Under the pieces are notes generated by a model, which was not told the origin of the DNA, did not search any database, and saw only the letters and a list, made by a program, of their open reading frames with translations. DNA of 36,879 nt from Wohlfahrtiimonas larvae (GTDB lineage Bacteria > Pseudomonadota > Gammaproteobacteria > Cardiobacteriales > Wohlfahrtiimonadaceae). The position numbers and the translations under genes were made by a program. Location of the stretch: contig NZ_MVDO01000113.1 of the NCBI RefSeq assembly GCF_002006755.1, forward strand, positions 1-36,879, written 5' to 3'. Below are positions 4,151-10,236 of this stretch, in pieces (the first letter of the stretch is position 1; each line of letters begins with the position of its first letter).

Positions 4151-5128
4151 ATGACTTACAAAGCAATCGTGATTGATAAAAATCCTGATTACATAGCAAC
4201 GTTAACAGATTTGAATGAAGATCAGCTCCCTGAAGGTGATGTAAAAATTGATGTGATTGCATCTACAATGAACTATAAAGATGCTTTAGCGATCACGAAT
4301 AAGAATCCTGTGGTTCGGACATTCCCATTAACACCGGGCATTGATTTAGTGGGTAAAGTCACAGAGAGTCAATCCAATCGTTTTAAAATAGGCGATACCG
4401 TTATACTAAATGGCTTTGGCGTAGGTGAAGTTCATTCTGGTGGATTGGCTGAAAAAGCATCATTAAAATCAGAATGGCTCATTCATTTACCAAAAGCAAT
4501 TTCACCAATCGATGCAATGACAATTGGTACAGCTGGCTACACAGCAATGCTGTCCATCATCGCACTAGAAAAACATGGCTTAACACCTGAATCAGGCAAA
4601 ATTTTAGTCACAGGTGCAACTGGCGGAGTTGGTAGCTTTGCAGTTTCTCTATTGACCAAATTAGGTTATGACGTGATTGCAGCAACAGGTAAAGCAAGCG
4701 AACATGAATACCTTTATCAATTAGGTGCAAAAGAGATCATTGATCGCCACGAGTTATCAGATAAAGGTAAACCATTACAAAAAATGCGTTGGGCTGGTGC
4801 GATTGATTCTGTGGGTAGCAATACGCTTGTGAATGTATTGGCTGCCACTGAATATGGCGGCTGTGTTGCTGCTTGTGGTTTAGCACAAGGCTTTGATCTC
4901 AATGGCACAGTGATGCCATTCATTCTACGTAATGTGACTTTACGTGGTGTAGATAGCGTAATGCGCCCACTGCCTGATCGCATTGAAGCCTGGAGCAGAT
5001 TAGCTGAGTTGATTGACCCTGCAACATTGGCAAATATTCGTACAGAAATCACATTGGATGAAGTGATTGAAAATGCTGATAAGATCATCAATGGTGAAAT
5101 TAAAGGTCGATTGGTTGTGAAGATCTAA
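4151..5128 (+). CDS. acuI: Acryloyl-CoA reductase / YhdH-AcuI family zinc-free MDR oxidoreductase
   Basis: NADPH-dependent medium-chain reductase of 325 residues, matching E. coli YhdH over its whole length. Shared blocks include STMNYKDALAITNK, FPLTPGIDLVGKV, GGLAEKASLKSEWL, the nucleotide-binding VTGATGGVGSFAVSLL, and VMPFILRNVTLRGVDSV with C-terminal GRLVVKI. The family reduces acryloyl-CoA to propionyl-CoA, which detoxifies a reactive intermediate. The ATG lies one base after the kinase stop, implying translational coupling. Why a glycerate uptake and phosphorylation pair should carry this enzyme is not obvious. A strong hairpin follows 59 bases downstream. Confidence 0.92.
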   Translation: MTYKAIVIDKNPDYIATLTDLNEDQLPEGDVKIDVIASTMNYKDALAITNKNPVVRTFPLTPGIDLVGKVTESQSNRFKIGDTVILNGFGVGEVHSGGLAEKASLKSEWLIHLPKAISPIDAMTIGTAGYTAMLSIIALEKHGLTPESGKILVTGATGGVGSFAVSLLTKLGYDVIAATGKASEHEYLYQLGAKEIIDRHELSDKGKPLQKMRWAGAIDSVGSNTLVNVLAATEYGGCVAACGLAQGFDLNGTVMPFILRNVTLRGVDSVMRPLPDRIEAWSRLAELIDPATLANIRTEITLDEVIENADKIINGEIKGRLVVKI

Positions 5129-5187
5129 TTCACAAACTTACCCACAGGATCTTTGGATAACCCAATTTATCTGTCCATACATAAACC

Positions 5188-5226
5188 AATAGAATAAAAC
5201 CGAGCAATGCTCGGTTTTATTCTATT
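5188..5226. terminator. Bidirectional intrinsic terminator
   Basis: Perfect 18-bp stem with a 3-base AAT loop: AATAGAATAAAACCGAGC (5188-5205) pairs with 5209-5226. The GC core is flanked by A and T runs on both sides. It lies between the converging acuI-like gene and the minus-strand 57-residue gene that ends at 5239, so it can serve both. Confidence 0.9.
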
Positions 5227-5238
5227 CACTACCATATT

Positions 5239-5412
5239 TTACAAAGTACATGCACCGCCTGCACAGCTCATATCTTCAACTTCTTCAAAATCATGTTTTT
5301 GAGTTCTCTCGAGCGTGATTCTATCATCAGCACAAAACACACAGTCATCACCAGATTGTTCATTGAAGAATGCAACCATCAGTTCTTTCCCACATGTATG
5401 ACATTTTTTCAT
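5239..5412 (-). CDS. 57-residue double-CxxC (zinc-ribbon-like) protein with CAGGAC tail
   Basis: A short frame read by hand. It starts MKKCHTCGKELMVAFFNEQS and ends SCAGGACTL, 57 residues in all. Cysteines 4/7 and 24/27 form two CxxC knuckles 16 residues apart, a spacing compatible with one zinc ribbon. A third cysteine pair (50 and 55) lies in the tail SCAGGAC, after an acidic stretch (DFEEVED). AGGGC precedes the ATG by a normal distance, and the stop sits just before the strong hairpin at 5188-5226, as expected of a real gene. I do not recognise a named family. A zinc-binding regulatory or redox role would be inference. It lies 149 AT-rich bases after the 610-residue gene on the same strand. 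Confidence 0.7.
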   Translation of the reverse strand: MKKCHTCGKELMVAFFNEQSGDDCVFCADDRITLERTQKHDFEEVEDMSCAGGACTL

Positions 5413-5561
5413 TTTATTTGCCCTGTTTATAGTATTTGAAAGTGCACTATTATATCGCTCAAAAACAACGACAGAGGGATTTTAATTTAATCATAGATAC
5501 ATATCACTTTTCTAATCATTAAATAATTCGTCATCAAATTGATATTTCAAATATTAAATTT

Positions 5562-7394
5562 TTAATATTTGGGAAAAATAACTTCAAAGTTTTTAATACT
5601 ACTATCATATAACCTAAGTGTTTTAATATGCACTGGTAAATATTTATTATTTTTAGGCAAAGGTGTGGAAAGTTTACCTGTATTGGGATCATACAAATAA
5701 GGATTCTTAGAAATCGTATGGCGCGCAATATCCCCTTTGTTTTGTAAAAACATAGGAATGTCTTTGGTAGGAATTTTATCCTTCATCACTAGATATTTTA
5801 AATAGACCATTTGATGATAATTTTGTTGTTCATACAGGCGCATCCAATAATGATTAAAATCACTATAAGCTGATAGTTTTTGTGCAAACTCTAGTGTTTT
5901 AGGCATCACTTTATCTTTTAAAGTTTCTTCTAAAAAAGTTGGAGAGAGATGCTGTTGTAGATATTTATCGGATGATAAGATCTGTAACAAATTAAAGTAA
6001 TCATTATAAAACTCAATGGATGGATAAATCTCATTCAGAGATAATAATGCTTCCTTAGGAGAAATACCTAATGTTTGAAAATAATCCTGATACCAGTCAG
6101 TTAAAACTTGCAAAAACCGCTCTTGGCGACTTTGTAATATATCTAAACCGCGTCTTCTATCTAAAGATCGTGATTGCGTATTATATGTAGCAGGGGCTGT
6201 GTTTAACCATGTTTTATCAACAGACTGAGTAGAACGTTTAAGACTGATTAATTTAGACCAGCTTTGCTCCTTCGCTGTCTGTGATCGTTTTGTATATATC
6301 TCCTCTAAAGCTGGTGAGAGAATCACACCAAAATCCTTCAAAAAAGATAAAATAATAAACTCATCTTCCTCGGTAAAAGTAAATTGATGAGCAGGTGATG
6401 TATAAATTCGAATATAAGGATAAGCCACATCCTTAAAATCCTGTTTCATTTCAAATAATACAACTTCATTAAGTTTTTTTCCTATTGTAGGCGCATACGG
6501 CCTAACAATCCATTGAAGACGAGCATCATTCATCATGGTATCCAAGAAACCACTGTCTAATAATGCATTCATACTTTGATCTAAAAATTGTGTCACAGAA
6601 ATATTAACAAAAAAATGTAATAACGCAGCTTTAGATTTTTCATGAAATATAAGATCAATCCACTGCCTAACAAGTACTAATTGATTTAACCCCTCATCAA
6701 CATCACCTTGAGTGATTTTCATTATGGCATCTGTTAAATATAGTTGAATTAATTTAATCATTCCTGAACTTGGCACAGTATCTGCTGAAGCATTAAAATC
6801 ATTATGAAATAATGCATAGTTATACTGAGAAGTTTCTACTAAGACTTGAAATCTATCTAAAAGCTGTTGATTTCTCTTAATTGTTTTTTGAATATAAGTC
6901 GATCGGCTCAACATTTTTGTTAAGCATAAGTTATCAAGGTACTCAGCACAGGCAAAGAAATCTTTTGTATAAAGGTATCGTTTATTATCTAGTGATTCCT
7001 GCTTAAAACTCAATAATTTTTGCCCACCTAAGTCATCTTTTAACTCAATCAATTTCGCATCATAACCAAAAAGGTCATTCAATATAGTTTTATTAGCGGA
7101 AAACTGAAAAATTGATTGTGTTGGATTGGCAAAATAATTTGTAATGAGACGGCCATCATGAGCTCGCTGATTTAAGGTTTCATCATTAATTTTAAAAATA
7201 TCACGATACGCGATTAACCAATCTTCTCTCGGATATGTTAGTCCCATCCATCCAATATAAGCATTATTTTCAAAATATTGATCAGATATCGGTTGTAAAA
7301 CCATAAACTCATTCAACTCAGATGAAAGCTCATCTGATGCTTTAGCATCAACTACATGAATTAATAACAATAAAAAGCATATGATTTTCATCAT
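5562..7394 (-). CDS. Secreted or periplasmic protein of unknown function (610 aa)
   Basis: I do not recognise this protein. It starts with a clear signal peptide (MMKIICFLLLLIHVVDAKA, likely cleaved after an A-x-A-like site near residue 19), so it should be exported. The rest is mostly alpha-helical in composition, rich in L, K, Y, N and Q, with no further long hydrophobic segment and no obvious catalytic motif. The C-terminal region has NPYLYDPNTGKLSTPLP, resembling the NPY/DPxTGK-type motif at the end of some secreted proteobacterial proteins. AAGGAA lies about 11 bases before the first ATG. Base composition is more AT-rich than in the neighbouring pnp gene, which may reflect weaker codon selection or acquisition by transfer. 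Its 3' neighbour is the 57-residue cysteine protein. Confidence 0.8.
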   Translation of the reverse strand: MMKIICFLLLLIHVVDAKASDELSSELNEFMVLQPISDQYFENNAYIGWMGLTYPREDWLIAYRDIFKINDETLNQRAHDGRLITNYFANPTQSIFQFSANKTILNDLFGYDAKLIELKDDLGGQKLLSFKQESLDNKRYLYTKDFFACAEYLDNLCLTKMLSRSTYIQKTIKRNQQLLDRFQVLVETSQYNYALFHNDFNASADTVPSSGMIKLIQLYLTDAIMKITQGDVDEGLNQLVLVRQWIDLIFHEKSKAALLHFFVNISVTQFLDQSMNALLDSGFLDTMMNDARLQWIVRPYAPTIGKKLNEVVLFEMKQDFKDVAYPYIRIYTSPAHQFTFTEEDEFIILSFLKDFGVILSPALEEIYTKRSQTAKEQSWSKLISLKRSTQSVDKTWLNTAPATYNTQSRSLDRRRGLDILQSRQERFLQVLTDWYQDYFQTLGISPKEALLSLNEIYPSIEFYNDYFNLLQILSSDKYLQQHLSPTFLEETLKDKVMPKTLEFAQKLSAYSDFNHYWMRLYEQQNYHQMVYLKYLVMKDKIPTKDIPMFLQNKGDIARHTISKNPYLYDPNTGKLSTPLPKNNKYLPVHIKTLRLYDSSIKNFEVIFPKY

Positions 7395-7531
7395 AAAGGA
7401 CTCATTCCTTTTATATCTTTGAGTATATAGGTAGATGATATCAATTATATTACAAATGTTTACATAAAAAATCTTATCGTAATGATTATAAAATTTAAAT
7501 CAATAATTTTAGATGAATTATTGACATAAAA

Positions 7532-7553
7532 AAACCGAGATTACTCTCGGTTT
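7532..7553 (-). terminator. Rho-independent terminator of rpsO-pnp
   Basis: On the minus strand, AAACCGAGA-GTAA-TCTCGGTTT forms a 9-bp stem with a 4-base loop, followed immediately by a run of seven T. It lies 14 bases after the pnp stop. Confidence 0.9.
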
Positions 7554-7567
7554 ATCATACTATCACA

Positions 7568-9673
7568 TTAATTTATTGAGCAGCCGGTATCTACATCTTT
7601 CATTGTTAAACGGATACGGCCCTGCTTATCAATTTCTAATACTTTTACACGTACAACTTGGCCAACTTTCAAGTGATCAGATACGTTTTGGATACGCTCT
7701 TCAGAAGGAATCTGAGAAACGTGAACCATACCATCACGGCCAGGCATTAAGTTAACGAATGCACCAAAGTCCATGATGCGAACGATTGGTGACTCATAAA
7801 TTTTACCCACTTCGATATCAGCTGTAATTTCTTCAATGCGCTTCTTAGCTTCTGCTGCTTGATCAGCGTTAGATGCAGCAATTTTAATTGTACCGTCATC
7901 TTCAATTTCGATTACCGCGCCAGTTTCTTCAGTGATACCACGAATTGTTACGCCACCTTTACCGATAACATCACGGATCTTATCAGGATTGATGCGGAAA
8001 ATTGTGAAACGTGGTGCAAATTCAGAAATTTCTTCACGTGAAGTATTCAACGTGCTGCTCATTTCGTTGATGATATGTAAACGTGCAACTTTAGCTTGTG
8101 CTAATGCTTGTTCCATAATTTCTTTCGTGATACCTGTGATTTTGATATCCATTTGAAGTGCAGAGATACCATCCGTTGTACCTGCTACTTTAAAGTCCAT
8201 ATCGCCTAAATGATCTTCATCACCTAAGATATCTGTCAATACAGCAAAACGATCACCTTCTTTGATCAAGCCCATTGCGATACCAGCTACTGGCGCTTTC
8301 AAAGGAACACCTGCATCCATCAATGACAATGATGCACCACAAACTGATGCCATTGAGCTTGAACCGTTAGATTCAGTAATTTCAGAAACAACACGTACTG
8401 TGTATGGGTATTCTTCCATACTTGGCAATACAGCTTGAACACCACGCTTTGCTAAACGACCATGACCAATTTCACGACGCTTAGGTGAACCAACCATACC
8501 AGTTTCACCTACAGAATATGGAGGGAAGTTGTAATGGAACAAGAATTTGTCTTTATATTCACCATCTAATGCATCAATGATTTGTGCATCACGATCTGTA
8601 CCCAAAGTTGTTACAACTAATGCTTGAGTTTCACCACGTGTAAACAATGCAGAACCGTGAGTACGAGGTAAAACACCAACTCGAGAAATGATTGGACGAA
8701 CAGTTGTTGTATCACGGCCATCGATACGTGGCTTGCCATCCAAGATATGATCACGAACTAAACGATAGCTCATATCATCAATTACAGCATTAATTGCATC
8801 TTTTGTGTAACCATTTTCTTCTGTAATCAATGCTTCAATTGCTTCAGCACGTAATGCATCAATTGCAGCATAACGATCTGCTTTCACAGAAATTGTATAG
8901 GCTGCTTCTAATTTATCTGTGGCAAATGCTTTAACTGCTGCTTCTAATTCAGCATTTTTCTCTACAGTTTCGTATTCAAATTTAGTAACACCAACTTCTG
9001 CACATAATGCATTGATATTATCTACCACAACTTGCATTGCTTCATGGCCGAACATTACTGCACCTAGCATTACATCTTCGCTCAATAATTCAGCTTCTGA
9101 TTCAACCATCAACACTGCATCTTTAGTACCCGCAACCACCAAATCTAATTTAGATGTTGCCAATTGTTCTTTAGATGGGTTCAACAAGTATTCACCATTG
9201 TCATAACCAACACGCGCAGCACCTAAAGGACCTTCGAATGGTAAACCTGCTAATGATACAGCCGCTGATGCACCAATCATTGCAGGAATATCTGGATTCA
9301 CTTCTGGATTAATTGAAACAACAGTTGCAATAACTTGAGTTTCGTTTGTGAAACCATCTGCAAACAATGGGCGCAATGGACGATCGATTAAACGTGCGAT
9401 CAATGTTTCACCTTCGGAAGGGCGTCCTTCACGACGGAAAAAACCGCCAGGAATTTTACCAGCTGCATATGTGCGCTCTTGGTAGTTCACAGTTAATGGA
9501 AAGAAATCACGAGTAGGATCAAACTTTGTAGAAGCAACACATGTAACGAATACAACTGTACCTTCTACATCAACCATAACTGCAGCATTTGCTTGGCGAG
9601 CAATTTCACCAACTTCTAAGACAACCTTTTGATTGCCATACATAAATTCTTTTTTAATAGCTTTTAATTCCAT
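7568..9673 (-). CDS. pnp: Polyribonucleotide nucleotidyltransferase (PNPase)
   Basis: Phosphorolytic 3'-to-5' exoribonuclease of the RNA degradosome, acting as a trimer in the cytoplasm. The 701 residues start at [10 protein letters not shown] (ATG at 9671-9673, AAAGGT upstream). An in-frame extension to 9739 lacks homology and is rejected. Two RNase PH domains come first ([12 protein letters not shown]; then [14 protein letters not shown] and [20 protein letters not shown]). A KH domain follows ([18 protein letters not shown]), then an S1 domain ([20 protein letters not shown]). The protein ends almost directly after S1, without the acidic/Ala-rich tail of E. coli PNPase. It is the second gene of rpsO-pnp, and its leader is probably the site of autocontrol. 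Confidence 0.98.
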
Positions 9674-9906: not shown

Positions 9907-10173
9907 TTAGCGACGTAATTGTAAACGCTCAATCAAAGTTTGATAACGCGCTAAATCTTTACGCTTCAAGTAATCCAACAATTTACGACGTTGGTTAACC
10001 ATTTGCAACAAACCACGACGTGAGTGATGATCTTTTTTATGAGCATCAAAATGAGCACGCAATGCATTGATGTTATTAGTTAAAAGTGCAACTTGAACTT
10101 CAGGAGAACCTGTGTCGTTTTCGCCGCGTGCGAACTCAGCAACGATTGCTGCTTTTTTTTCTGTTGTTAACAT
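9907..10173 (-). CDS. rpsO: 30S ribosomal protein S15
   Basis: Primary 16S rRNA-binding protein of the small-subunit platform, 88 residues, close to the standard 89. Conserved blocks are [44 protein letters not shown] and the C-terminal [12 protein letters not shown]. The start is the ATG at 10171-10173, 11 bases after GGAG. An in-frame TTG nine bases upstream is too close to that Shine-Dalgarno to be used. It precedes pnp, the usual gammaproteobacterial order. A consensus -10 lies upstream at 10237-10242. Confidence 0.98.
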
Positions 10174-10236
10174 AAAGTACAAAACTCCAAATAAAATAAT
10201 ATTGTGTCAATGGCGATGACAGCATAATTGATGACA

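What the first reader, a model, noticed from the sequence alone, without database searches (positions are those of the whole stretch)
5562..7394. Large secreted protein with no recognisable family
A 610-residue protein with a clear signal peptide, helical composition and a C-terminal NPYLYDPNTGKLSTP motif, but no motif I can tie to a function. It is AT-richer than the flanking core genes. Placed between a metabolic trio and rpsO-pnp, it looks like a lineage-specific insertion into a conserved neighbourhood.
Basis: partly seen in the sequence, partly recalled or inferred. Interest (0 to 1): 0.5.

Follow-up and report, generated by a model that had tools for sequence, protein, structure and literature searches.

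The report
Fast-evolving exported protein family, uncurated
This is a real, probably exported, mostly helical bacterial protein that matches no named protein family; it belongs to a scattered, undescribed family, has multiplied at this spot in some Wohlfahrtiimonas species and is missing from the same spot in others, and what it does is unknown.

Summary
In detail: 5562-7394 (-) encodes a 610-aa protein with a signal-peptide-like start. No Pfam, NCBIfam, PHROGs, PADLOC or PDB-sequence match reaches significance. The genus is Wohlfahrtiimonas. The acuI-pnp interval lacks this gene in 2 of 6 genus genomes; it holds one copy in the window, two in W. populi, two in one MAG and at least three in another. 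So "lineage-specific insertion" is right. Foreign DNA is not suggested: third-codon-position GC lies within the range of the window's other genes. "No family" is half right: profiles join it to an uncurated, patchy family elsewhere in the class (hhalign 99.2%, E 1.8e-19; a profile of distant members alone finds the window protein again at E 6e-10). AlphaFold models are confident, helical, with a small C-terminal beta unit and no convincing PDB match. Its dN against W. populi is 5-24 times that of six neighbour genes, under purifying selection. Best guess: a disulfide-stabilised, exported, non-enzymatic binding protein whose partner varies. Function is untested.

The parts
5562..7394 (-). 610-aa probably exported helical protein (the finding)
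7335..7394 (-). signal-peptide-like segment, about residues 1-20, AKA|SD; in distant members the same place is a membrane-anchor-like segment
   Evidence: hydropathy; cleavage site read by eye
7405..7410 (-). AAGGAA, a plausible ribosome-binding site, 10 nt before the first ATG
   Evidence: sequence; by eye
6924..6950 (-). conserved cysteine pair (residues 149 and 157), the only cysteines of the mature protein; inferred disulfide
   Evidence: both Cys in 20 of 21 rows of A1 (the other row lacks the region) and in 20 of 21 rows of A7 (the other lacks both); the two alignments share 3 rows
5814..5831 (-). EQQNYH block (residues 522-527), invariant in the 10-row subfamily A2, not conserved in the wider family
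5661..5705 (-). NPYLYDPNTGKLSTP, in the C-terminal beta part; counterpart of NPYTGxPxxxD in the wider family
5239..5412 (-). 57-aa Cys-rich ORF, present in 6 of 6 genus genomes including the two empty sites; the inserts lie on either side of it
   Evidence: no Pfam match
7532..7553 (-). terminator-like hairpin after pnp, which separates pnp from this gene
   Evidence: 3 such sites found in 5000-7800, 1.2 expected in shuffles
5188..5226 (-). terminator-like hairpin (19-nt perfect arms) between acuI and the 57-aa ORF

Best explanation
Shown: a lineage-specific, multicopy member of an uncurated gammaproteobacterial family of proteins that begin with a hydrophobic export or anchor segment and continue as a helical body with a conserved cysteine pair and a C-terminal beta unit. 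Inferred: the protein is exported by Sec, the two cysteines form a disulfide outside the cytoplasm, and it works by binding a partner rather than by catalysis. In Wohlfahrtiimonas the anchor looks like a cleavable signal peptide and extra segments have been added in the middle. Tandem copies next to pnp then diverge fast, which fits a variable partner: an envelope component, a competitor, a phage or an animal host. Which partner, and whether the protein leaves the periplasm, is not shown.
For: Family: A1 (own bacterial family only) against A5 (distant only) by hhalign, probability 99.2, E 1.8e-19, 398 columns; the A5 profile recovers the window protein at 6.1e-10 and its C102 paralog at 1.0e-6. 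Export: the N-terminal segment is the most hydrophobic stretch in 18 of 18 distant members and in 17 of 21 rows of A1, the window protein included; cysteine pair kept or lost together. One fold: models with pLDDT 82 and 89, pTM 0.82 and 0.88, and, by eye, the same order of helices and final strands. Multicopy and variable. Fast but constrained: dN 0.312 against 0.013-0.059 in six neighbours, dN/dS 0.16; three MAG-to-MAG pairs 0.22-0.23 against 0.03-0.05 for pnp and acuI.
Against: No experiment and no partner. Synonymous change is near saturation in the key pairs (pS 0.65-0.69), so dN/dS is rough. The members of A5 were found with profiles that started from A1, so the two alignments are not fully independent samples. 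Four A1 rows (one MAG copy with its start cut by my coordinates, L042, and the two short his-side copies) do not have their most hydrophobic stretch at the N terminus. An invariant polar block (EQQNYH) in the subfamily could be an active site. No recurrent neighbour hints at a partner: no Pfam family matched more than 2 of 61 neighbour ORFs. The G001-G003 his-side pair evolves slowly (dN 0.031), so speed is not a property of every member. Binding rather than catalysis rests mainly on the lack of a conserved catalytic set.
Confidence: 0.45

Rival explanations
1. A secreted factor aimed at a competitor or an animal host (effector or adhesin-like), expanded in a genus often found with flies and animals.
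For: Fast divergence, tandem copies, presence and absence between species. One of 21 family rows has a weak hit to the Pfam model Pesticin, E 0.048.
Against: The window protein matches no toxin, effector or adhesin model and the Pesticin hit is a single row; relatives are scattered over many families of the class. A partner gene such as an immunity gene was not looked for beyond the 61 neighbour ORFs of distant members. By its name W. populi came from a plant (recalled).
Confidence: 0.2
2. An exported enzyme with its active site around the EQQNYH block and the near-invariant Arg 181.
For: EQQNYH and several other polar residues are invariant in 10 of 10 subfamily rows; the Arg is kept nearly throughout. 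One of 21 rows has a weak hit to the helical enzyme model Lyase_1, E 0.0025, and adenylosuccinate lyases appear in the Foldseek list at E 1.5-2.6.
Against: EQQNYH is not conserved outside the subfamily; the profile of all 21 rows matches no PDB sequence at E up to 10; the lyase rows have TM-scores near 0.1.
Confidence: 0.13
3. Dispensable duplicates that drift and decay.
For: Short copies exist: the G001 and G003 his-side copies (312 aa) lack the C-terminal unit. In G002 an N-terminal piece (C39) and a C-terminal piece (C77) lie near contig ends with stops beside them, either one broken copy or a gene cut by the assembly.
Against: Copies at acuI-pnp are full-length or nearly so, with dN/dS 0.16-0.23 in the three pairs compared there, and the cysteine pair is kept.
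Confidence: 0.12

Closest known systems
Uncurated family of anchored helical proteins, mostly about 415-470 aa, in other Gammaproteobacteria (no name in the libraries searched)
   Same: N-terminal hydrophobic segment, N-x-Y/F motif, Cys pair, LL-x-R-Y, C-terminal NPYTGxP unit, similar order of secondary structure
   Different: The window protein has a cleavable-looking signal instead of an anchor, and inserts near residues 83-110 and 380-470 (by eye); identity is only 13-18%
NCBIfam NF050028 cold adaptation protein ActJ
   Same: Weak match to residues 215-280, E 0.015
   Different: 15.8 bits against a cut-off of 150; only 1 of 21 members matches
LbcA, helical lipoprotein partner of the protease CtpA (PDB 7rqf)
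   Same: Exported helical scaffold; first in the Foldseek list of the window model
   Different: E 0.15 and TM-score 0.09, which is no match; quoted only as an example of what an exported helical binder can do
Type IV pilins and type II secretion pseudopilins
   Same: Helix followed by a D-P-x-G-x-P-like beta unit (resemblance recalled)
   Different: No pilin leader motif at the N terminus; no pilin hit for the C-terminal piece in Pfam or PDB

Membership tests
Uncurated gammaproteobacterial helical family | Profile similarity over most of the length | tested here: met
   hhalign over 398 columns; the distant-only profile finds the window protein, over residues about 132-240
Uncurated gammaproteobacterial helical family | Conserved cysteine pair and near-invariant Arg after it | tested here: met
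Uncurated gammaproteobacterial helical family | N-terminal hydrophobic export or anchor segment | tested here: met
   cleavage itself not tested
Uncurated gammaproteobacterial helical family | C-terminal NPYTGxP beta unit | tested here: met
   the window copy reads TISKNPYLYDPNTG, a loose match
Cold adaptation protein ActJ | Score above the curated cut-off of 150 bits | tested here: not met
   15.8 bits
Type IV pilin / pseudopilin | Prepilin-peptidase leader before the hydrophobic helix | tested here: not met
   the N terminus has no such motif, read by eye (motif recalled)
Type IV pilin / pseudopilin | Sequence match of the C-terminal unit to pilin models | tested here: inconclusive
   no pilin model listed for 19 members at E up to 5 nor a pilin in the PDB list; the whole-family profile gave only E 0.14 to a fimbrial protein
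LbcA-like exported helical scaffolds | Same fold | tested here: inconclusive
   window model: Foldseek E 0.15; distant model: VIA Z 5.9, rmsd 8.5, 148 aligned

The most novel reading that the evidence does not exclude
The acuI-pnp interval in Wohlfahrtiimonas is a diversification site for a class-wide but undescribed family of exported proteins with a fold not yet seen in solved structures; copies are added on either side of a 57-aa Cys-rich gene and diverge under conflict with a host, phage or rival.
Probability: 0.2. Interest if true: 0.5.

Novelty: new member of a known kind. Interest (0 to 1): 0.3.

Why it matters
Exported proteins without a family are usually left as hypothetical. Here single hypothetical genes from many Gammaproteobacteria can be joined into one family with a confident structural model and a short list of conserved residues, which makes it testable. 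The pnp-side copies give a ready natural experiment: empty, one-copy and multi-copy species of one genus.

Tried and rejected
Foreign DNA by composition: not supported, third-position GC is in the native range. Mobile element: only weak repeats around the gene (I2 and I4, about 80%, no control run); no phage match; one distant member, L099, had no plasmid match (the window protein itself was not searched there). Pilin-like C-terminal unit: no support. ActJ: far under cut-off. Cullin-3 in the PDB by sequence: E 0.09, taken as chance. Foldseek: nothing at E 0.001 or better in PDB for either model or in the viral set for the window model (the distant model was not tried there); VIA best Z 7.6 and 7.0, in the range its own note calls uninformative for helical proteins. 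So the fold is 'not matched', not 'proved new'. Conserved partner gene: none recurrent in 61 neighbour ORFs from 19 loci of 18 genomes (64 found, 3 long ones left out). The four weakest distant hits (G080, G095, G291, G370; E 1e-4 to 0.008) were not followed. Papers: 'Wohlfahrtiimonas' with 'genome' (15 of 101 listed), with 'secreted' and 'hypothetical protein' (1), and 'Wohlfahrtiimonas populi' (7) (listings and starts of abstracts), and 12 passages of PMC9301364; I saw nothing on this gene in them. The family was not searched for by name, since it has none.

Full report
Observation. The ORF at 5562-7394 (-) is real: 610 aa, ATG start, plausible ribosome-binding site, preceded by a terminator-like hairpin after pnp. 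It is conserved over its whole length at 60% identity in W. populi. GC is 31.4% against 40-42% for near neighbours, but third-position GC (24.1) is that of pnp (23.8) and within the range of the window genes measured (23.4-35.6). Two paralogs in the same genome show the same pattern, so I read the low GC as amino-acid make-up, not origin.

Where it comes from. A genome scan named the genus. The search of 57 relatives, own genome included, found matches in 8, from two genera of one bacterial family; 49 had none, including all 9 genomes of genus g4. The profile search of the 18 genomes of that bacterial family again gave 8. Copies lie beside hisG in the window genome, W. populi, G002, G007 and G009, and one gene away from it in G001 and G003 (hisG is named from recall). 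As this place is shared by two genera, I take it as the older one. Beside pnp the picture changes from species to species: pnp / this gene / 57-aa ORF / acuI in the window; copy A / 57-aa ORF / copy B in W. populi; 57-aa ORF / two copies in G005; 57-aa ORF and at least three copies in G002, across a contig break; and only the 57-aa ORF in G001 and G003. The tree puts the window gene with W. populi copy A (100/99), then with the five MAG copies at this site (96/98); copy B groups with two copies elsewhere in the MAGs (97/98). So inserts lie on both sides of the 57-aa ORF and are probably not all one event. Deep branches of that tree are long and unsure, as its own checks say.

Family. Single-protein searches of Pfam, NCBIfam, PHROGs, PADLOC and PDB found nothing above cut-off; Pfam and NCBIfam scans of the 21 relatives in A1 gave only weak hits, each in one or two rows, the strongest Lyase_1 at E 0.0025 in one row. 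The A1 profile matches no PDB sequence. Profiles against genomes did better. A1 matched 5 of 369 class genomes, the window's included; A3, with four distant ones added, 11 of 369; A5, distant rows only, 23 of 369 at E 0.01, the four weakest doubtful. The three sets bear the same handles, and each round was seeded by the one before. The stronger tests are these: A5 holds no row of the window's bacterial family and still finds the window protein (6.1e-10) and C102 (1.0e-6), and A1 against A5 gives hhalign E 1.8e-19 over 398 columns. Nine of 349 phylum genomes matched A7, the window's included, all in the same class; how many of the 349 lie outside the class is not shown. Four distant members have no Pfam match above cut-off; NCBIfam gave one weak hit among the 21 rows of A7.

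Structure. The window protein modelled at pLDDT 82.2, pTM 0.82; a compact distant member at 89.1 and 0.88 (its alignment held 3 of 21 rows from the window's bacterial family). Nothing in PDB matches either model convincingly, nor do viral models match the window model.

Evolution. Against W. populi copy A, dN is 0.312 with dN/dS 0.163; six neighbour genes give dN 0.013-0.059 and dN/dS 0.016-0.058. The C82 pair gives 0.278 and the his-side pair 0.359, the latter over 452 codons and perhaps not orthologous. Three MAG pairs of family copies give 0.22-0.23 against 0.031 and 0.050 for pnp and acuI. The leuS-side pair of G007 and G009 gives 0.132, and the G001-G003 pair only 0.06. Conservation in the 10-row subfamily is highest at residues 511-540 and 271-300 and lowest at 361-420 and 91-120.

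Mechanism. The cysteine pair, kept or lost as a pair, and the hydrophobic start speak for a folded life outside the cytoplasm. Lack of a class-wide catalytic set, a helical body and fast divergence speak for binding. The partner is unknown. I put 0.45 on the binding reading.

Verdict. The interpretation needs two changes: there is a family, though none of the libraries searched has curated it, and the DNA is not foreign by composition. As a finding it is a modest one: a lineage-expanded, probably exported protein of unknown function.

Noticed in passing
window 5239-5412 (-): A 57-aa Cys-rich ORF (C-x2-C pairs, GGACTL end) found in 6 of 6 genus genomes; dN/dS 0.03-0.07 in four pairs, no Pfam match. 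It looks like a small metal-binding protein (inference).
   Followed up: partly
L030:3121-5762 (own genome, contig C102): A family copy overlaps by one base (TAATG) a second exported-looking protein of 337 aa whose first 68 bp, the signal-peptide code, are 97% identical to those of the copy; the rest shows no detectable similarity. It looks like a recent copying of the export signal onto another mature part.
   Followed up: partly
window 10120-10230 (-): Ribosomal S15 leader (Rfam RF00114, 52.9 bits) before rpsO.
   Followed up: no
L142:1112-1897: A distant member stands beside a protein that looks like a type IV pilin accessory protein (TfpX/TfpZ, recalled); no Pfam family recurred more than twice among the neighbours.
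   Followed up: no
L143:6867-8174: In G117 the distant member's first frame loses the C-terminal match, which a second frame carries: a frameshift or a sequencing error.
   Followed up: no
L046 and L044 (G002 contigs C39 and C77): An N-terminal and a C-terminal piece of a family gene lie near contig ends with stops beside them: one broken copy, or a gene cut by the assembly.
   Followed up: partly
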